The notes under the pieces are model-generated. The model was not told the origin of the DNA. It saw only the letters and a program-made list of their open reading frames with translations, and did not search any database. From the NCBI GenBank assembly GCA_035934015.1, contig DASYYH010000028.1, positions 1 through 64,000 on the forward strand: DNA of 64,000 nt, in the 5' to 3' direction. Source of the DNA: Candidatus Acidiferrales bacterium (GTDB taxonomy: Bacteria > Acidobacteriota > Terriglobia > Acidiferrales > UBA7541). The first letter of the stretch is position 1. Every line of letters starts with the position of its first letter. Shown here one piece after another: positions 1-29,459 of this stretch. The position numbers and the translations under genes are program-made.

Positions 1-2387
1 GCATTGAGTTTGAGTTGCGCAATTTGGCGAACCTGCAACAGGCCGTCATCTGTGGAATTGGGCTGGCGACCTAAAACAAGCGCGTCTCTCTCGGGGAAAT
101 TGGGAGTCGAGATTCCATGAACGGCGAAATGAATGATTTTGAACTGAGCCAACGGCTCCGATGTAAAGTCGGCTTTCGTGGCTCTATCGCCGAGCAACAG
201 AACTGTTTGCTTTGGGTCTTGGAGCGCTTGGCTTGCCGAGATCAGCTCGGCGCGTGTTTCGGGAAGTGGGTACAGATGTGCGCCCGAAATATCGTAAACG
301 CCGCGCGAGACAGTCTGAACGACCCCTCCGGTTGCTCCTGATCCGTGGGTTTGTCCTTCCATGTCATAGGGGACATCTCCGACTCCCAAGAACGCCATTT
401 GCGGCTGGTGAGCCCGCTGGCGGTTCCGTAAGAAGTCGAGAACAGTTGCCGATGGGGCATAGCTGATTGTGTGTGATTGAAGAACGTATCGGCCGTCAGG
501 TCCGACAAGGGCGTCGAAGGCTACGTTATGCAAGGAACCGTCAGGGACGATGATCAATCGCGTCAGCCGCAGAGATTCGGGAATTGGTTTGAGAAGTAAG
601 GCGTAGAGCTCCTCTGCTTCCTGAGTTCCGCTTTTGCCCTGCATCACGTCGGCAACATATTGAGAGGTTAGCGTTTCGATTCGTTTTCGACCGGCTTGGA
701 GGCGGACCAGTGCCGACGCTGTTCGAGTTAGCGCGAGACAATAGGAGGTTGGGTCTGCAAGGACATATTCCAGAATTGCCTCATCATTCGAGAGGCTTGC
801 TTGCGCAGTTTTGAGCGCAACCGGATGGGTCGTAACACTGCGCTGTTCTGAGCTGAGGGCTTCGTCAATGTAGTTGAGCTTGTATTCCTCCTCAGTAAGA
901 CTTTCGAGCAGTGTTGCCCTCGCCGCTGGATCGTTGGAGTCGAGTAATTGGGACTGAATTTTGGAGATTTGTTGCTGGACCGCAGAATTGGCCGGGGAAT
1001 CCACGGTTCGGTTCGCCTTGCTCCTCATATTGTCGAGAATCGATCGTCCTCGCGCGCGCTCGATGGCATCAAACGCGGCGCTTACATCATTTTGTTTGGC
1101 TGAAAGCTCAAAATCGTCGAGGTAGGTGTCGCTCATCGTGCTTAGAAGCGAACTCTCAGAGTATGCTCCCGGAAAGCGAAGGAGCATTCCGTCAATCGCG
1201 TCCTCGGCTTGCGTGTAGAGGCTATGAGCTTGTTGAAGCTGGCCGGTCTTTTCCTTGAGCTGCGCGAGTGCGTCCAAGGCGCGAGGGAGATAGTACGTGT
1301 CCCCCACGGTGCGACTAATCTGAAGACCTTTATTGAGTGCATCCTCAGCTCCCTGCGGATCACCTTGATCCTGGAGCAGATTTGACAAGTCGAAGGATGA
1401 TTGCATCGCGACGCGAGGGAGGCCCATGCGTGACGCGGATTCGAAAGCTTCTCGAAAATACTCTTCGGCTTGCGCTTTGTGGTTTAACCGCCTCGCGAAT
1501 TCGCCGAGGATCAGCATGTCCTGACCCTGATGCTCGATCATTTTTTGTTTCTGCGCTTGAGCGAGAGTATTCTGCATCAAGGATTCTGCTTCACCCATTT
1601 TCCCCAAGGCGGCAAGCGCCTCAGCCTTTCCTTCATAAGCCATAAACGGAGTCCCGACATCGTGGTCGTCGTTTGCGATTGCAATGGCTCGATTGAAGAA
1701 GAACATGGCTTCTGAGGTTCGATTGAGCGCATTGAAACCGTTCCCGATGATTTCTAGATATCGAAGCTCAGTGCCGGAGTCTGCTTGCGCCGAGGCTGTC
1801 ATGAGCGCTTTCCCCATTAGGGTGCTCGCGCGGCTTACGTCGCCCTGCAGGAAACCGACTAGCCCTAGCTCTCCGCTTGCGCGATTAGCCCATTCCTTTT
1901 GTCCGAGCTTTTGGGCGAGGCTCAGAGCCTGTTGCCAGTCTTGCTTCGCGGCGGCGGCGTTGACTTCATCATCGGCGTCGCCCTTTACACCCAGGCACCA
2001 AAGGCGCAGTTCCTCGTCGTTTTGAACGAGAGGAGTCTTCAATTGGGCGGCGATGAAGGCAGAGAGCTGCGGGAAGGACATCCCGTCAGAGGATCGACTT
2101 AGACCAACCTTCGCATACAGCGCGTCACGCTCGTCGTGAGCTTGTATGGCAAGCTCTTCGGCCCGTGCGTAAAGAGGCGTGGCGGCTGGAAGGTTGTGAA
2201 GCCAGTAAAAGTAACTTGCCTTGGCGAGCAAGCCTCGGATGTCGTTTGGCTGGGACCCGACAGCCCTTTGTGAATGTGATCCCCACGGAGTCCGCGGCGA
2301 ACGCCGAACAACGTAAAGAACGATTAGGCCTGCGATGATGCCAGTGCCGATGGAAACCAACAGGATGCTGCGCTTTCGGCGAGACAT
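1..2387 (-). CDS. TPR-CHAT domain protein, partial (C-terminus off left edge)
   Basis: The minus frame is open from 2387 to the window edge, giving about 795 residues without the C-terminus. An N-terminal basic stretch and one membrane segment (about residues 8-26) are followed by a cytoplasmic or periplasmic alpha-helical TPR-like array (about 130-420). A CHAT domain, the caspase/separase-like peptidase fold, starts near residue 600 (LYALLLKPIPE, IIVPDGSLHNVAFDAL). The catalytic-His motif IIHFAVHG lies near residue 750; the catalytic Cys would fall just beyond the edge. CHAT proteins are proteases or protease-like signalling modules, several in anti-phage or cell-death systems. The role here is inferred only from its place beside restriction genes. 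The start is uncertain: in-frame ATGs also occur at 2420 and 2444, but 2387 places the membrane segment right at the N-terminus. No clear ribosome binding site is seen. Confidence 0.82.
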   Translation of the reverse strand, partial: MSRRKRSILLVSIGTGIIAGLIVLYVVRRSPRTPWGSHSQRAVGSQPNDIRGLLAKASYFYWLHNLPAATPLYARAEELAIQAHDERDALYAKVGLSRSSDGMSFPQLSAFIAAQLKTPLVQNDEELRLWCLGVKGDADDEVNAAAAKQDWQQALSLAQKLGQKEWANRASGELGLVGFLQGDVSRASTLMGKALMTASAQADSGTELRYLEIIGNGFNALNRTSEAMFFFNRAIAIANDDHDVGTPFMAYEGKAEALAALGKMGEAESLMQNTLAQAQKQKMIEHQGQDMLILGEFARRLNHKAQAEEYFREAFESASRMGLPRVAMQSSFDLSNLLQDQGDPQGAEDALNKGLQISRTVGDTYYLPRALDALAQLKEKTGQLQQAHSLYTQAEDAIDGMLLRFPGAYSESSLLSTMSDTYLDDFELSAKQNDVSAAFDAIERARGRSILDNMRSKANRTVDSPANSAVQQQISKIQSQLLDSNDPAARATLLESLTEEEYKLNYIDEALSSEQRSVTTHPVALKTAQASLSNDEAILEYVLADPTSYCLALTRTASALVRLQAGRKRIETLTSQYVADVMQGKSGTQEAEELYALLLKPIPESLRLTRLIIVPDGSLHNVAFDALVGPDGRYVLQSHTISYAPSATVLDFLRNRQRAHQPQMAFLGVGDVPYDMEGQTHGSGATGGVVQTVSRGVYDISGAHLYPLPETRAELISASQALQDPKQTVLLLGDRATKADFTSEPLAQFKIIHFAVHGISTPNFPERDALVLGRQPNSTDDGLLQVRQIAQLKLN

Positions 2388-23472: not shown

Positions 23473-23802
23473 ATGGCTGACGAGTGTCAAAGTCCCCAAC
23501 CACAACAAACGCCGGCGCCTGCCGGAACGCGCATGGTGAAATGCGTGAAATTCGGCCGCGAAATGCCCGGCCTCGATCGCGTGCCGTGGAAGGGCGAACT
23601 GGGGAAACGCATCTACGAAAATGTCTCCAAAGAAGGCTGGAAGATGTGGATCGAATATTCGAAGATGCTGATGAACGAATACCGCTTGAATCCTCTTGAT
23701 TCCGGTTCGCAGAAAATCATGGAAGAGCAAATGGAAAAGTTTTTTTTCGGCGAAGGCGCACAATTGCCGCCCGGTTACGTCCCGCAAAAATCCAAGGGCT
23801 AA
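23473..23802 (+). CDS. yggX: Fe(2+)-trafficking / oxidative damage protection protein YggX
   Basis: The 109-residue protein carries the complete YggX family core from MVKCVKFGREMPGLDRVPW through KRIYENVSKEGWKMWIEYSK to GEGAQLPPGYVPQ. YggX-type proteins protect iron-sulfur clusters and handle labile iron. The N-terminal extension of about 20 residues (Pro/Gln-rich) is unusual for the family. It is supported by a GGAGG site right before the first ATG, with a second candidate start at the internal MVKC. The gene stands alone between the secreted protein and the convergent ATP-grasp operon. Confidence 0.92.
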   Translation: MADECQSPQPQQTPAPAGTRMVKCVKFGREMPGLDRVPWKGELGKRIYENVSKEGWKMWIEYSKMLMNEYRLNPLDSGSQKIMEEQMEKFFFGEGAQLPPGYVPQKSKG

Positions 23803-23875: not shown

Positions 23876-25168
23876 CTACGCGGAGAATTTTCTGCTCACA
23901 GGATGTTCAACGGGCAGTCGCGGAGAAAACACGAAATTCAGCCTGGCATGCGCTTCGCGCAGGGCCGCTTCTACATCCGCAGGCGACGAGGCGCGCGCGA
24001 AAATGAATCCAAGATAGCTCGCGCCTTCGGGCCACGCCGCCACGTAATCTCTCTTCCGTGCCGTGATGCGAATTTCTGTTACGTGCGATACGTCTTCGGC
24101 TGCATCCAGCCCCTCGACGCCTTCGAAAATGCCGCTTCGTGGCACGGGAATCATCATCACGCCCGAAGCTTCCGTCTCGCGCTCCGCATCCGTTCCTCCG
24201 AGTGCCAGCGCGTGGCGCAAAAGAAGTTCTTCGAGCGAAATCCGTCGCGGGCCAAAGCGAACCGCACGGGAACAAAGCCCGCCGATAGGGCGCGGCGCGA
24301 TTTCCAGCACCCACGGGCCATCTTCATTGATCCTGAACTCCGCGTGCGCGGGGCCATGCGTGAGGTTGAGAGCTCGCACGGAGCGCGCCGCGCAATCGCG
24401 CAAAGCGAATTGGTCCGCGTCCCGAAGTCGCGACGGCGTCAGGTAAATCGTTTCCTCGAAATACGGGCCTTCGAGCGCGTCCGGTTTGTCGAAAATGGCG
24501 AGAATCCGCAAATCGCCGCAATCCAGCAGACCCTCGACGGCGACTTCCGCGCCAGGGACATATCGCTCCACGAGCAAACGATCGAGACCAGATTCCCGCG
24601 TCACGCGAATCTCCGGAGATTCAAGCAGTGCTCGAATACGTGAAACCGCATTTCGAAATTGTTCCCCATCGTCTGCGCGAATCACGCCCTGGCTCGCCGC
24701 AAGCGAAAGCGGTTTGACGACGCACGGAAATTTGACGCGCGGGAGAACATTTTCGGGTGCCTCGTTGATTGCGAAAGAGAAAAAATCGGGGACAGGCAAC
24801 CCCGCGGCTCGCAACGTCTCGCGTTGCGCGAGTTTATTTCGGCAGCGTTCGACGGACACGGGATCGTTGCCGGTCAAACCTAGTGCGCGAACTGCGTATG
24901 CAGCCGCCGGCGTCGGGCGGTCGCCTAGCGCGAGAATCGCATCCGGCGGATTTTGCGCGAACTGCCGCGCAATTTCATTCGCTGCCTCTGGGGGATTCTC
25001 GAAATGCAGCGGCAGCGCGCCGTCGCTCCACGGGTCGTCAAGTTTGTGGCAGCGATCGGTCGCGAATTGAACTTCGACGCCGAGCGCATCGGCGGCTTCG
25101 GCAAAGCCGCGCGTCTGATAACCGAGCTTGCTGGCGAGAATGAGCAATTTCTTCCGCGCTGCCCTCAT
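23876..25168 (-). CDS. ATP-grasp enzyme
   Basis: A 430-residue ATP-grasp ligase. It has an N-terminal Rossmann-like pre-ATP-grasp domain (KLLILASKLGYQTRGFAEAA, DAILALGDRPTPAAAY), ATP-binding segments KLAQRETLRAAGLPVPDFF and FPCVVKPLSLAASQGV near residues 130-175, and the metal-binding EFRINEDGPWVLEIAPRPIGG near 285-305. ATP-grasp enzymes join a carboxylate to an amine or thiol through an acylphosphate. The substrate is unknown. It starts 40 bases after the extended stop of the radical SAM selenoprotein gene on the same strand, so the two are almost certainly one operon and may make one small molecule or modified peptide. Confidence 0.87.
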   Translation of the reverse strand: MRAARKKLLILASKLGYQTRGFAEAADALGVEVQFATDRCHKLDDPWSDGALPLHFENPPEAANEIARQFAQNPPDAILALGDRPTPAAAYAVRALGLTGNDPVSVERCRNKLAQRETLRAAGLPVPDFFSFAINEAPENVLPRVKFPCVVKPLSLAASQGVIRADDGEQFRNAVSRIRALLESPEIRVTRESGLDRLLVERYVPGAEVAVEGLLDCGDLRILAIFDKPDALEGPYFEETIYLTPSRLRDADQFALRDCAARSVRALNLTHGPAHAEFRINEDGPWVLEIAPRPIGGLCSRAVRFGPRRISLEELLLRHALALGGTDAERETEASGVMMIPVPRSGIFEGVEGLDAAEDVSHVTEIRITARKRDYVAAWPEGASYLGFIFARASSPADVEAALREAHARLNFVFSPRLPVEHPVSRKFSA

Positions 25169-25208: not shown

Positions 25209-26648
25209 TCACACGAATGCGTCCGACTGCCGAAGCGCTTTCTTTATCTTCGCGATGGGGGCCAACTGGTCCCCGGTCGGCTCGGCTCAACAATACCAGG
25301 GCTCCGTGAGGTATGGAATCGTCGCGCGAGACGCCAGAACAGGCTGCTGCTTCGCAATTTCGCTCGCGCCCGTAGCGCGCCGTGCCGCTTCCTCGACGCG
25401 CTCGAAGATCCGCCAGCGTGGCCGGCCGATTTTTTCTCCTGCGTGAACGATCTGCTGCAGTTCTTCGCAAAGCGCATCCACGCGCGGGTCGGGATGTTTC
25501 CAGGGGTAGATCATGGCACGCTCGTCGAATGGCGCGACGATCTCTCGCACTTCATTCAGTTCGAGCAAGAGCGAGCCTCCGGGAATCAGCAGCCGGATGG
25601 CCAACTGAATGGGCGCGACATTTTCTATCAGTTCGTTCGCGCGCAGAACTTCAAGCAGATCCAGATAACTTTCCAGCGTCGTCCACGGCGTAAAAGGCAT
25701 AAAGGTTGGCTGCAAAGTCAGGCCGATCTCGCGAAATCGTGCCGCGACGCTCAGAAAATCAGCGCGCGTGTGATGTTTTTCGAGCTTTTCGAGAACGCCG
25801 TCATCCACGGACTCGACTGCGCTGGTGACGAACAGGCAGCCAGTGTTGCGGAGAAGGGGCAAGTGTTCCGCGTGTTTCAGCAAGTGTTCGATTTTGATTG
25901 TGGCGTCGTAGGTTACTGCGGGAAATTCATTGTGCAGCGCTTTCACGAGCGGGATCGCATGCCCAATACCATTGAAAAAATCGGGATCGCCAAACGTAAT
26001 GTGCCTGGCCCCTGCCGCAATCTGCTGGCGGACGTCCGCCAGCACCACGTCGCGATCCACAATCCGGAAAACGCCTTTGTATACTGGCACAATCGGGCAG
26101 TGGCGGCAGAGATGCTTGCATCCGCGGCTCGCTTCCGTGTAGCCAACGGTCCGGCTCTCTCCGCTGGGAAGCGTCAGCCTGGCGTATCTGTCCAGCGGTA
26201 CGAGATCGCGGCGCTCAGGCACAACGAACTTTTGCCGCGCGAGGGAAACGACTGGTTCTTTTTGCGCGCCGTGCGCGTCTCCCGCTTCAACTCGCGCCGC
26301 CAGGTCGCAGAATCCCTGTTCAAACTCGCCGCCGAGAATCGTCTGTACGCCGAGCTTGCGCAACCAGGCTTCGTTCACCGGTGCATAGAGTCCAAAAAAG
26401 CAAATGTGCGCTTCGGGATTGACGCGGCGCACAATGGTCAGCGCTTCCGTCGCCAGGCGCGTCGCGGTGTGCATCGGGACATAAAATGCAATCAAGTTCG
26501 CATTGCGGACTGAGACTTCGTTGAATTCCTCGCGGGAGAGGTCCAGGCAAACGACTTCGTCGCCGCGTTTGCGCAGCCACGCGGCAGGAGACGCCAGGCC
26601 AAATGGCTGGCGTCCAAGCTCGTAGGTCGAAATCAGAAGAACTTTCAT
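25209..26648 (-). CDS. CUAEP-tail radical SAM selenoprotein with B12-binding-like N-terminus
   Basis: Radical SAM enzyme of 479 residues when the in-frame TGA at 25287-25289 is read as selenocysteine (Sec454). Residues 1-130 are a cobalamin-binding-like Rossmann domain (KVLLISTYELGRQPFGLASP). The 4Fe-4S/SAM motif C177-xxx-C181-xx-C184 (GCKHLCRHCP) and an (alpha/beta) barrel follow. A standard stop would give ...EPWYC at 25290; the next codons give U-A-E-P and stay open for 25 residues to a TGA at 25209-25211. The tail C-U-A-E-P is the signature of the CUAEP/CCAEP-tail radical SAM family, in which some members use Sec and others Cys. A SECIS-like hairpin follows the TGA. The start at 26648 is chosen because MKVLLIS begins the domain; an ATG 16 codons upstream is less likely. 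Confidence 0.9.
25253..25279 (-). promoter_or_regulatory. Bacterial SECIS-like hairpin after the UGA codon
   Basis: On the minus strand, 7 bases after the TGA, a hairpin forms. Lower stem CGA/TCG, a small internal loop, upper stem GGGG/CCCC, then ACCAGTTGG with a possible CCA/TGG inner pairing leaving GU at the tip. The tip lies about 20 bases past the TGA, the usual place for the SelB-binding loop, and the element is within coding sequence as expected in bacteria. Confidence 0.6.
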
Positions 26649-26783: not shown

Positions 26784-29459
26784 ATGGCTGCCGCGCCCAA
26801 GAATTCTTTCAATGCACGCTCTACGCTCAAAGTTGCAAATGAATCCTTCGAAATTTTTCGACTGGAAACGCTGGAACGAACGGGCAAGGGAAAAATTTCA
26901 CGCCTTCCGTTTTCATTGAAAATTTTGCTCGAAAATCTGCTGCGCCAGGAAGACGGTCAATTCGTTCATGCCGAAGATATTTCCGCGCTGGCGAATTGGG
27001 AGCCGCGTGCCGAGCCTTCCCAGGAAATTTCGTTTCTCCCCGCGCGCGTGCTGCTCCAGGACTTCACCGGTGTGCCCGCCATCGTGGATCTTGCGGCGAT
27101 GCGCCAGGCTATGAGCAAACTCGGCGGCGACGCGAAAAAAATCAATCCGCTCTTTCCCGCCGAGCTGGTGATTGACCACTCCGTGCAGGTCGACCAATTC
27201 GGCACGCCGCAATCCTTCGCATTCAATTCGGAATTGGAATTCATGCGCAATGTGGAGCGCTACGCATTCCTGCGCTGGGGACAGAACAGCTTCCGAAATT
27301 TCAAGGTTGTGCCGCCGGACACGGGAATTTGCCATCAGGTGAACCTTGAGTATTTGTCGCGCGTCGTGTTCCGCCGTGAGGAGAACGGGAAGCAATGGGC
27401 TTATCCCGATTCTCTGGTAGGCACGGATTCGCATACGACCATGGTCAATGGTCTTGGCGTTTTCGGCTGGGGCGTTGGCGGCATCGAAGCCGAAGCGGCG
27501 ATGCTCGGCCAGCCGCTTTCCATGCTGATTCCACAAGTTGTGGGATTCAAGCTGCACGGGCGCTTGCATGAAGGCGCGACGGCGACGGATTTGGTTCTCA
27601 CCGTCACGCAGATGCTGCGCAAAAAAGGCGTCGTCGGAAAATTCGTCGAGTTTTACGGCACAGGCCTTTCGAGCCTGACGCTTCCCGACCGCGCCACCAT
27701 CGGCAACATGGCGCCGGAATATGGCGCGACAATGGGATTTTTCCCGGTCGACGCCGAAACGCTCGCCTATCTGCGTTTCACCGGCCGCGATGAGGGGCAA
27801 GTGCGCTTGGTGGAAGCGTACACGAAGGAACAGGGCCTGTTTCGCACGGATCAAACGCCCGACCCGGAATTCACCGATACGCTCGAACTCGATCTGGGCG
27901 ATGTCGTCCCCACAATCGCCGGACCGAAGCGCCCACAGGATAAAGTGCCGCTGACACAGGCCAAAGAAGTATTCGAAAAGTCGCTGACCGCCGCTCCGAA
28001 ACACACAAGCGTGCAAAATAATGGCGACCGCTTCGAACTCGGCGACGGCTCCGTGGTGATCGCAGCGATCACGAGCTGCACAAACACATCGAATCCGTCG
28101 CTGATGCTCGGCGCGGGAATTTTGGCGAAAAAGGCTGTCGAGCATGGGCTGAAATCGAAGCCTTGGGTGAAGACCAGCCTCGCGCCCGGCTCGATGGTCG
28201 TGAGCGACTATCTGAAAAAAGCCGGCCTGATGACTTATCTCGAAGAGTTGCGCTTTCATCTCGTCGGCTATGGCTGCACGACCTGCATCGGCAATAGCGG
28301 CCCGCTTTCCGATTCGATCAGCAAAGCCATCAAGGAAAACGATCTCGTTGCCGTTTCCGTCCTGAGCGGCAACAGAAATTTCGAGGGCCGCATCAATCCG
28401 CTCTGCCGCGCCAATTATTTGGCTTCGCCGCCTTTGGTTGTGGCGTATGCGCTCGCCGGGCGCATGGATTTCGACATGGAAAAGGATGTGCTCGGCACCG
28501 ATCCGTCCGGCAAGCCCGTCTATCTCCGCGACATTTGGCCTTCGCCCCAGGAAGTCGAGACGCTGATGCGCTCTTCCTTGACCAGCGAAATGTTTCGCAA
28601 AGAATATCGCGACGTCTTTACCGGAGACAATCGCTGGCGCGCCCTGCCCGTCCCCGAAGGCGATCTCTATCAATGGAACGCCAAATCTACGTACATCAAA
28701 TTGCCGCCATTTTTTGAGGACATGCCGCCGAAGCCCGCGCGCATCGAGGATTTGCGCGGCTTGCGTGTGCTCGCCGTGCTCGGCGACAGCGTGACGACCG
28801 ATCACATCTCGCCGGCCGGCTCGATTCCCGCGGATAGTCCAGCGGGCAAATATCTGATCGCTCATGGTGTGCAGCCGAAGGATTTCAATTCCTATGGCGC
28901 GCGCCGCGGCAACCATGAAGTCATGATGCGCGGAACCTTCGCCAACATACGTCTGCGAAATCTGCTCGCGCCGGGAACCGAAGGCGGCTGGACGCTGCAT
29001 CAGCCGAGTGGCGAAAAAATGACCATCTTCGACGCCGCGGAAAAATATCGCGCCGAAAAAACTCCGCTCCTCGTGATCGCCGGCAAAGAGTACGGCGCGG
29101 GTTCATCGCGCGACTGGGCCGCCAAAGGAACCTTGCTCCTCGGCGTTCGCGCCGTGCTGGCGGAAAGCTTCGAGCGCATTCATCGCAGCAATCTGATCGG
29201 CATGGGCGTCGTGCCGCTGGAATTTCAGAATGGCGAGACAGCCAAATCGCTCGGCCTCACGGGCCACGAAATTTTCGAAGTGGAAGGCCTCGCAGACCAG
29301 TTCAAGCCGCGAAAAATTGTCCGCGTGCGCACCCGTGACGCTGCCGGGAAGGAAAAAACATTTTCCGCTGTCGCGCGAATCGATACGCCCGTCGAAGCCG
29401 CGTATTACCAGCACGGCGGGATTCTTCAGTACGTTCTGCGCCAGATGTCGGCATCCTGA
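26784..29459 (+). CDS. acnA: Aconitate hydratase A
   Basis: TCA-cycle enzyme converting citrate to isocitrate through a 4Fe-4S cluster. At 891 aa it has the length of bacterial AcnA/IRP1-type enzymes. Cluster cysteines are seen in [11 protein letters not shown] (near residue 435) and [12 protein letters not shown] (near 498-501). Substrate-binding segments include [20 protein letters not shown] (near 212-231) and the C-terminal swivelling domain [19 protein letters not shown] (near 770). It is monocistronic, divergent from the radical SAM operon with 135 bp between them, and converges with the surface-protein gene. Confidence 0.97.

What the first reader, a model, noticed from the sequence alone, without database searches (positions are those of the whole stretch)
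25209..26648. Radical SAM gene is a selenoprotein: the TGA in a CUAEP tail is readable
Seen: the frame reaches ...EPWYC then TGA. The codons that follow read A, E, P and stay open for 25 codons to another TGA at 25209-25211. C-U-A-E-P is the defining tail of the CUAEP/CCAEP radical SAM family (recalled from family knowledge). A hairpin with GGGG/CCCC stem and GU at its tip sits about 20 bases past the TGA, as for a bacterial SECIS. A standard gene caller would cut the protein 26 residues short.
Basis: partly seen in the sequence, partly recalled or inferred. Interest (0 to 1): 0.85.

Follow-up and report, generated by a model that had tools for sequence, protein, structure and literature searches.

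The report
Radical SAM selenoprotein with CUAEP tail
This gene's in-frame TGA is very probably read as selenocysteine, giving a radical enzyme with a paired cysteine-selenocysteine tail; the family already has a name in NCBI's library, but no reaction was found for it, and its close partnership with a dipeptide-making enzyme makes that testable.

Summary
Confirmed. The frame at 26648-25209 (-) runs through TGA 25289-25287 as ...EPWYC-U-AEP plus 22 residues (Sec454). It belongs to NCBIfam NF040546, "CUAEP/CCAEP-tail radical SAM (seleno)protein" (640 bits, cut-off 500): a new member of a named family. The host genome has tRNA-Sec, SelA, SelB and SelD. Tails of 130 loci (window, 49 relatives, 80 named loci): CU 87, CC 33, UU 3, UC 1, none readable 6. 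The tail evolves as protein; the hairpin covaries in Sec genes and is weaker or absent in most Cys genes.

(2) A near-obligate partner, a BL00235-like L-amino acid ligase (window 23876-25168), found in 48 of 48 CUAEP genomes among 297 of the phylum (54 hold it) and 24 of 26 among 249 of another class (32 hold it). (3) Neighbours for iron and Fe-S handling. (4) ArsL, which makes the C-As bond of arsinothricin, is the nearest scored relative and also ends in a vicinal Cys pair.

Inferred mechanism (about 0.4): the Cys-Sec arm presents a soft acceptor to a SAM-derived radical, and the ligase caps the resulting amino acid.

The parts
25209..26648 (-). CUAEP radical SAM selenoprotein gene, 479 residues with Sec454 (ATG at 26648, terminal TGA 25211-25209)
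   Evidence: Translation; NF040546 640.3 bits with the tail, 623.8 without, cut-off 500; Radical_SAM PF04055 39.9 bits; radical SAM motif C177-x3-C181-x2-C184 invariant in 43 sequences.
25287..25289 (-). UGA codon read as selenocysteine 454
   Evidence: Same column is TGA or TGC/TGT in relatives; the tail after it evolves as protein.
25212..25286 (-). Coding tail AEP + 22 residues after the Sec codon
   Evidence: Codon-position signature; close relatives end in AFV/SFV and then a stop of varying type.
25258..25274 (-). Bacterial SECIS-like hairpin GGGG-A-CC-AGUU-GG-CCCC, +13 to +29 after the UGA, bulged A, G-U in the loop
   Evidence: Fold; helix with covarying pairs in CU genes, weaker or absent in most CC genes.
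23876..25168 (-). ATP-grasp L-amino acid ligase homologue, the partner gene directly downstream
   Evidence: ATP-grasp_4 112.8 bits and LAL_C2 53.2 bits; PDB 3vot BL00235 E 8.9e-48 over residues 23-417; co-occurrence 48 of 48 and 24 of 26.
23473..23802 (+). YggX-type bacterial Fe(2+) trafficking / oxidative damage protection protein, convergent with the ligase
   Evidence: PF04362 122.6 bits; NF003817 125.2 bits, cut-off 74; its cluster lies near CUAEP in 46 of 130 loci.
26784..29459 (+). Aconitase AcnA (an Fe-S enzyme), divergent neighbour; context only
   Evidence: TIGR01341 1383.8 bits, cut-off 945.

Best explanation
The gene encodes a selenoprotein of the NF040546 family. SelB and tRNA-Sec decode the UGA at codon 454 with the help of the hairpin just after it, giving a flexible C-terminal arm with a vicinal Cys453-Sec454 pair. 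(Supported by sequence: family, reading frame, covarying hairpin, host machinery. Not shown: the protein itself.) The body is a Rossmann plus radical SAM barrel like that of AprD4 and B12-type enzymes. Most likely (inference, about 0.4) it works like its nearest scored relative ArsL: the Cys-Sec arm holds a soft acceptor (a metalloid, a persulfide or another chalcogen) beside the [4Fe-4S]-SAM site, SAM gives a radical, by analogy the 3-amino-3-carboxypropyl radical, and a methionine-like amino acid results. The partner L-amino acid ligase then joins that amino acid to a second one. Iron and Fe-S neighbours would supply or repair the cluster. The confidence below is for the selenoprotein identity; the chemistry stands at about 0.4.
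For: Family membership far above cut-off, with a 16-bit gain from the tail; over the cut-off in 0 of 14 control genomes. Host machinery complete. Tails of 130 loci: 87 CU, 33 CC, 3 UU, 1 UC, 6 without a readable tail. At least 20 Sec/Cys changes at the second position on a quick tree (39 of its 148 inner branches are weak); the window's own trio holds CU and CC. Hairpin with at least 6 of 7 pairs in a fixed register in 72 of 110 CU genes and 2 of 33 CC genes, in any nearby register 105 of 110 and 14 of 33; pair 15-29 is GC 46, AT 26, CG 18 among the CU genes. SelB in 34 of 37 Sec-form genomes searched by handle. ArsL relation: NF040542 272.4-272.7 bits over residues 3-399, and the last residues KRCCLKC of three ArsL-type proteins have their CC aligned, across a long gap, with Cys453-Sec454. 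Ligase partner. BL00235 makes Met-Gly and Met-Met (PMC6920838, passages read), and methionine is itself an ACP-thioether. ArsL-type clusters of Alicyclobacillus and Priestia also carry an ATP-grasp gene.
Against: No protein or peptide evidence. The window's hairpin alone is no better than shuffles. One relative inside its contig, L092, has no CUAEP tail in frame. Five of eight Cys-form genomes still have SelB, and 3 of 37 Sec-form genomes show none (two of these 75% complete, one 95%). 14 of 33 CC genes still reach 6 of 7 pairs in some register, and the outermost pair 13-31 often fails in CU genes. No arsenic gene was recognised among the recurrent neighbours (families were scanned for a few representatives only), unlike ArsL clusters. 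The ligases of two ArsL-type clusters are only distantly related (24-25% identity), and the Pseudomonas arsL region shown has none. The fold is closest to AprD4, a 1,2-diol dehydratase by its PDB title, so ACP chemistry is not implied by the fold. 4 of 20 named CUAEP genomes lack a ligase match and a fifth has only a weak one; eight ligase genomes of the second sample have no CUAEP.
Confidence: 0.9

Rival explanations
1. The TGA is an ordinary stop; the 453-residue protein is complete and the AEP tail is chance or a relic.
For: The protein to residue 453 already scores 623.8 bits against the family; the hairpin of this one sequence is not stronger than shuffles; one relative, L092, has no CUAEP tail in frame.
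Against: Tail conserved with codon-position signature 0.258/0.120/0.477 against flat 0.72/0.73/0.71 after the terminal stop; Cys codons at the same column in 33 of 130 loci; full Sec machinery.
Confidence: 0.02
2. The Cys-Sec arm serves Fe-S or sulfur chemistry rather than ACP transfer: it ligates or rebuilds a sacrificial cluster, or carries a persulfide, and NfuA/SUF proteins re-supply it, as NfuA/NFU1 serves lipoyl synthase (recalled; search listing).
For: A cluster of NifU/NfuA-type genes in 26 of 130 loci, 22 of 27 copies upstream on the same strand (four copies scanned, each with a NifU domain); CUAEP follows SufC, a class-V aminotransferase, NifU_N and Rrf2 genes in L127, with the same cluster order in L147 and L171; YggX cluster in 46 of 130 loci; MiaB and RimO among close folds, Z 21.8-23.2.
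Against: Besides the motif cysteines and the tail pair no cysteine is invariant (C271 is nearly so), so there is little room for an ordinary three-Cys auxiliary cluster; MiaB/RimO model TIGR00089 only 26.7-27 bits, cut-off 251; it does not by itself explain the amino acid ligase.
Confidence: 0.3
3. Ordinary 5'-deoxyadenosyl radical enzyme (AprD4-like), with the Cys-Sec pair as a thiol-selenol reductant or radical relay that closes the catalytic cycle on an unknown substrate.
For: AprD4 is the best structural match, Z 26.4 over 405 residues; adjacent C-U, C-C, U-U and U-C all occur, as expected of a redox pair; pLDDT falls to about 59-79 over residues 431-479, as for a mobile arm.
Against: ArsL is the closer relative by sequence: NF040542 272 bits against 22.8-22.9 for the AprD4 model NF033070, and shares the vicinal C-terminal pair.
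Confidence: 0.25

Closest known systems
NCBIfam NF040546, CUAEP/CCAEP-tail radical SAM (seleno)protein
   Same: Residues 3-463 of 479 match 1-467 of 468 at 640.3 bits, cut-off 500; Cys-Sec-AEP tail.
   Different: Nothing essential for the window gene; in a few relatives the tail is UUAEP or UCAEP, which the family name does not cover.
ArsL, arsinothricin biosynthesis radical SAM protein (NF040542)
   Same: Homologous over residues 3-399; same radical SAM motif; vicinal Cys pair at the C-terminus aligned with Cys453-Sec454. ArsL is reported to move the 3-amino-3-carboxypropyl group of SAM to As(III) (PMC8552651, passages read).
   Different: 272 bits, below its cut-off of 450; ArsL-type proteins end in CCLKC without the linker and AEP tail; no arsenic gene recognised next to CUAEP genes.
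AprD4, radical SAM 1,2-diol dehydratase (PDB 6fd2)
   Same: Best fold match, Z 26.4, rmsd 3.6, 405 aligned.
   Different: 18% identity; AprD4 model NF033070 only 22.8-22.9 bits, cut-off 500.
BL00235, L-amino acid ligase (PDB 3vot), for the partner gene
   Same: E 8.9e-48 over residues 23-417; LAL_C2 domain.
   Different: Substrates of the window's ligase are unknown; whether BL00235 itself has any CUAEP link was not looked for.
Thioredoxin reductase Cys-Sec tail (recalled) and other selenoproteins with CU motifs (listed in PMC13188914)
   Same: Adjacent Cys-Sec.
   Different: Here on a radical SAM enzyme; a resemblance of the motif only.

Membership tests
NF040546 CUAEP/CCAEP-tail radical SAM (seleno)protein | Whole-protein score over the curated cut-off of 500 bits | tested here: met
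   640.3 bits with the tail.
NF040546 CUAEP/CCAEP-tail radical SAM (seleno)protein | C-terminal C-[UC]-A-E-P | tested here: met
   C453-U454-A-E-P.
Bacterial selenoprotein | In-frame UGA aligned with Cys in homologues | tested here: met
   87 CU and 33 CC among 130 loci.
Bacterial selenoprotein | SECIS hairpin shortly after the UGA | tested here: met
   Loop at +20; covarying helix in CU genes, weaker or absent in most CC genes. Alone not significant.
Bacterial selenoprotein | selA, selB, selC, selD in the host | tested here: met
Bacterial selenoprotein | Selenium in the purified protein | not testable with these tools
   Needs mass spectrometry.
Radical SAM superfamily | CxxxCxxC motif and barrel | tested here: met
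   C177, C181, C184 invariant in 43 sequences; PF04055; fold.
B12-dependent radical SAM | B12-binding domain (Pfam PF02310) | tested here: not met
   PF02310 21.2 bits, gathering 32.1; an N-terminal Rossmann-type part is in the model; cobalamin binding untested.
ArsL (NF040542) | Score over cut-off 450 bits | tested here: not met
   272.4-272.7 bits.
ArsL (NF040542) | RCCLKC tail | tested here: not met
   Tail is WYCUAEP with a longer linker; only the vicinal pair is shared.
ArsL (NF040542) | ACP transfer from SAM to As(III) | not testable with these tools
   Needs an enzyme assay.
MiaB/RimO methylthiotransferases (TIGR00089) | Score over cut-off 251 bits | tested here: not met
   26.7-27 bits.
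L-amino acid ligase (partner gene) | ATP-grasp core plus LAL C-terminal domain | tested here: met
   PF13535 112.8 and PF18603 53.2 bits; 3vot E 8.9e-48.

The most novel reading that the evidence does not exclude
CUAEP and its ligase are the two core enzymes of an unrecognised, widespread pathway. A Cys-Sec (or Sec-Sec) arm holds a metalloid or chalcogen, a SAM-derived 3-amino-3-carboxypropyl radical is joined to that atom to give a methionine-like amino acid, and the ligase locks it into a dipeptide that serves iron or Fe-S homeostasis or acts as an antimetabolite. The UUAEP forms would be natural adjacent di-selenocysteine radical SAM enzymes.
Probability: 0.3. Interest if true: 0.85.

Novelty: new member of a known kind. 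Interest (0 to 1): 0.52.

Why it matters
NCBI has a model and a name for the family, but the wide 2026 inventory that I could read (PMC13188914, 119 families) does not list it, and no paper in the held library uses the word CUAEP; I found no reaction for it. The near-obligate ligase partner, the vicinal tail shared with ArsL and the iron/Fe-S neighbours turn an orphan into a testable two-enzyme pathway. The UU and UC tails show that both members of the pair tolerate selenium. The truncated record of Thermomicrobium roseum shows that the Sec form can still be missed in public annotation.

Tried and rejected
An ordinary stop was rejected on tail conservation and codon-position bias. Single-sequence folding as proof of a SECIS was dropped (no better than shuffles) and replaced by comparison with relatives. 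Rfam on 601 bases around the site gave only four hits far below their gathering scores. Membership in ArsL or MiaB/RimO was rejected by score. A PDB sequence search with the radical SAM protein gave no significant relative (best E 0.067). The place of the tail relative to the [4Fe-4S] site could not be measured: no model file was among the files seen in the script box, so I rely only on pLDDT and fold ranges. The first neighbour clustering let antisense shadow ORFs displace real genes and was replaced. A search of plasmids for the ligase (E at most 1e-20, 9 records) did not hit the Thermomicrobium roseum plasmid; that organism's chromosome was not searched.

Rows dropped: 4 loci without a readable tail in the first set (L061, L071, L092, L094), 6 in all of 130 (those and L132, L138). 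The copy L198 (same genome as L133) was left out, one tail with under 36 bases after the codon (149 tails, 148 counted), and two rows with cores under 330 residues. Of 49 relatives fetched plus the window, 43 rows went into alignment A1.

Literature: two Haft papers cited by the review are not held, so I cannot say what they contain beyond the review's table. Of PMC13188914 I read parts 1 and 2 (of 3) of section 7, which hold Table 1, plus found passages; of PMC8552651, PMC9312934, PMC12013277 and PMC6920838 only found passages. The NfuA/NFU1 and lipoyl synthase link rests on a search listing with the start of an abstract (PMC9585516) and on recall. Searches without a hit. Search listings only. 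The Fisher p values and the Mann-Whitney p ignore relatedness of the genomes, and the fixed helix register was read off the same genes that were then counted.

Full report
What is there. The minus-strand frame from ATG 26648 runs 453 codons to ...TEPWYC, meets TGA (25289-25287), continues AEPTGDQLAPIAKIKKALRQSDAFV and stops at TGA 25211-25209. With the TGA read as Sec, the protein matches NCBIfam NF040546, "CUAEP/CCAEP-tail radical SAM (seleno)protein", at 640.3 bits over profile positions 1-467 of 468; cut at the TGA it gives 623.8 bits over 1-458 (cut-off 500). The nearest rows on a quick tree are Candidatus Acidiferrales and other Acidobacteriota.

Is the TGA read? The window's own genome (3.37 Mb, 28 contigs, 98.6% complete) has a tRNA-Sec with a UCA anticodon, SelB, SelA and a SelD that itself carries an in-frame TGA. 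All four pass their cut-offs; over the 14 control genomes the cut-offs are passed in 5 (tRNA-Sec), 2 (SelB), 1 (SelA) and 2 (SelD). Rfam's tRNA-Sec cut-off is permissive (a tRNA-Ser of this genome scores 48.1), but ARAGORN names the best hit tRNA-SeC. In 297 genomes of the phylum, 48 have a CUAEP protein over the cut-off. Together with the window, 130 loci give 87 CU, 33 CC, 3 UU, 1 UC and 6 without a readable tail. Of those six, L092 lies inside its contig and shows no CUAEP tail in frame. Of 45 of these genomes searched for SelB, 34 of 37 Sec-form and 5 of 8 Cys-form genomes have it (forms). In ten Sec genes with a tail of the same length (the window and nine relatives), differences per site at codon positions 1, 2, 3 are 0.258, 0.120, 0.477, against 0.720, 0.725, 0.709 beyond the terminal stop: the tail is translated.

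The hairpin. In the window it is GGGG-A-CC-AGUU-GG-CCCC with a bulged A and its loop at +20, an arrangement like that recalled for the E. coli fdhF SECIS. Alone it is not significant. Across genes it is: in the first set, 38 Sec genes average 6.03 of 7 pairs at +13..19/+25..31 and 8 Cys genes 3.25; the mean folding z against synonymous recodings is -1.14 against -0.13, below -1 in 24 of 38 and 0 of 8. In the enlarged set, 72 of 110 CU genes and 2 of 33 CC genes have at least 6 of 7 pairs in the fixed register; allowing a shifted register the figures are 105 of 110 and 14 of 33. Pairs swap between GC, AT and CG (15-29: 46, 26, 18; 14-30: AT 39, GC 23, CG 21; 18-26: GC 56, TA 16, CG 13), though mismatches occur too and the outermost pair 13-31 often fails. 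The Mann-Whitney p is 2e-11, not corrected for relatedness. One caution: the fixed register was read off these same sequences.

Both positions of the pair take selenium. Three Chloroflexota loci (L133, L139, L157) read TGG-TAC-TGA-TGA-GCG-GAG-CCA, that is WY-U-U-AEP, and L163 reads TGA-TGC, WY-U-C-AEP. Of the 3 UU and 2 UC genes, 3 and 1 reach 6 of 7 hairpin pairs in some register. The four genomes of L133, L139, L157 and L163 have SelB. A sample of 249 genomes of the class of L133 gave 26 CUAEP genomes: 24 CU, L133's own UU, and one further UC (L205). On a FastTree of 151 rows (148 with a tail type), the second position changed at least 20 times between Sec and Cys and the first at least once; many inner branches are weakly supported. 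The forms C-U, C-C, U-U and U-C are what a vicinal thiol/selenol pair would allow.

The partner. Directly downstream in the window lies an ATP-grasp protein (23876-25168) with an L-amino acid ligase C-terminal domain, whose best solved relative is the ligase BL00235 (3vot, E 8.9e-48). In the 297 genomes it occurs (E at most 1e-25) in 54, including 48 of the 48 CUAEP genomes; of the six others, two (G080, G213) hold CUAEP fragments. The two genes lie within 5 kb in 33 of the 48. In the 249 genomes of the second class it occurs in 32, including 24 of 26 CUAEP genomes; G388 and G417 have CUAEP alone and eight have the ligase alone. Read off, the two genes are neighbours there in one of the 24 (G513), far apart on one contig in three and on different contigs in twenty, so the link does not rest on neighbourhood alone. 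In 20 hand-picked named CUAEP genomes (of the 80 loci), 16 have it, one of these only weakly at 4e-26; the four misses are the genomes of L174, L156, L173 and L180.

Neighbours. Within about 8.5 kb in the 130 loci, the ligase cluster is found in 76, a YggX-type cluster in 46 (in four arrangements), and a NifU/NfuA-type cluster in 26 (22 of 27 copies upstream on the same strand) (names from one, one and four members scanned). In L127 the CUAEP gene follows SufC, a class-V aminotransferase (SufS-like by inference), NifU_N, Rrf2 and an NfuA-like gene, with the same cluster order in L171 and, without the NfuA-like gene, in L147. An oligopeptide symporter lies upstream in 10 loci, 6 on the same strand (one scanned). 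In the window itself the divergent neighbour is aconitase.

Relatives and fold. The next family is ArsL (NF040542), 272 bits over residues 3-399. Three ArsL-type proteins from plasmids of Alicyclobacillus, Priestia and Pseudomonas end in KRCCLKC, whose CC is aligned, across a long gap, with Cys453-Sec454; the cysteine columns invariant in that eight-row alignment are the three motif cysteines and the pair. ArsL is reported to move the 3-amino-3-carboxypropyl group from SAM to As(III) (PMC8552651, passages). ArsL-type clusters in Alicyclobacillus and Priestia contain an ATP-grasp gene as well, distantly related to the window's (24-25% identity); the Pseudomonas region shown does not. The predicted structure (mean pLDDT 92.6, with a low stretch at 431-440 and in the tail) is closest to AprD4, MgmA, OxsB, TsrM, CysS and MiaB; the B12-binding Pfam model stays below its cut-off.

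How it most likely works. Supported by sequence: UGA recoding, a Cys-Sec pair on a poorly ordered C-terminal arm, a near-obligate ligase partner. Inferred: the arm presents a soft acceptor atom to the [4Fe-4S]-SAM site, as the CC tail of ArsL may present As(III); the product is a 4-substituted 2-aminobutyrate, methionine-like, and the ligase, whose relative BL00235 makes Met-Gly and Met-Met (PMC6920838, passages), condenses it with another amino acid. I put about 0.4 on this chemistry, 0.3 on an Fe-S or sulfur role of the arm, and 0.25 on AprD4-like deoxyadenosyl chemistry with the pair as reductant. The identity of the acceptor is open.

Known or new. The gene is a new member of a family that NCBI has named. 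No paper in the held library uses "CUAEP", and the 2026 inventory of 119 prokaryotic selenoprotein families does not list NF040546. Two papers by the likely authors of the model (my inference) were not held, so I make no claim that it is unpublished. The UU/UC forms, the ligase partnership and the iron/Fe-S neighbourhood were found here; for prior mention I searched only the name CUAEP, radical SAM selenoproteins and, without a useful hit among the 20 of 416 papers listed, adjacent selenocysteines.

Noticed in passing
L133, L139, L157 (UU) and L163, L205 (UC), CUAEP gene ends: Relatives in Chloroflexota carry two adjacent TGA codons (UUAEP) or TGA-TGC (UCAEP) before a conserved AEP tail.
   Followed up: partly
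L207:7935-9440 (Thermomicrobium roseum DSM 5159 plasmid NC_011961): The public CDS named CUAEP/CCAEP-tail radical SAM protein ends at the TGA although AEP and a further open tail follow, so the Sec form is truncated in the record.
   Followed up: partly
L099 (own genome C8:23885-24829): The host's SelD match has one in-frame TGA, so SelD is probably a selenoprotein itself.
   Followed up: no
L208:1436-2668 and L209:1483-2706: ArsL-type (RCCLKC) clusters of Alicyclobacillus and Priestia contain an ATP-grasp gene and a carboxymuconolactone decarboxylase-like gene, which suggests that arsinothricin-type amino acids may be made into dipeptides there.
   Followed up: partly
L113:4543-5259 and six other loci: A DUF169-type cluster (one member scanned) lies in seven neighbourhoods, in six of them downstream of CUAEP on the same strand; its role is unknown.
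   Followed up: no
L092 (G001:C9): A CUAEP-family gene over the cut-off, inside its contig, has no CUAEP tail in frame; a frameshift or a tail loss.
   Followed up: no
L135 and L137: Nearly identical CUAEP genes with the same neighbours come from bins labelled Verrucomicrobia and Acidobacteria, so one bin is probably contaminated or misnamed.
   Followed up: no
L060 (G295:C65): The CUAEP frame holds an internal TAG as well as the Sec TGA; a sequencing error or a decaying gene.
   Followed up: no
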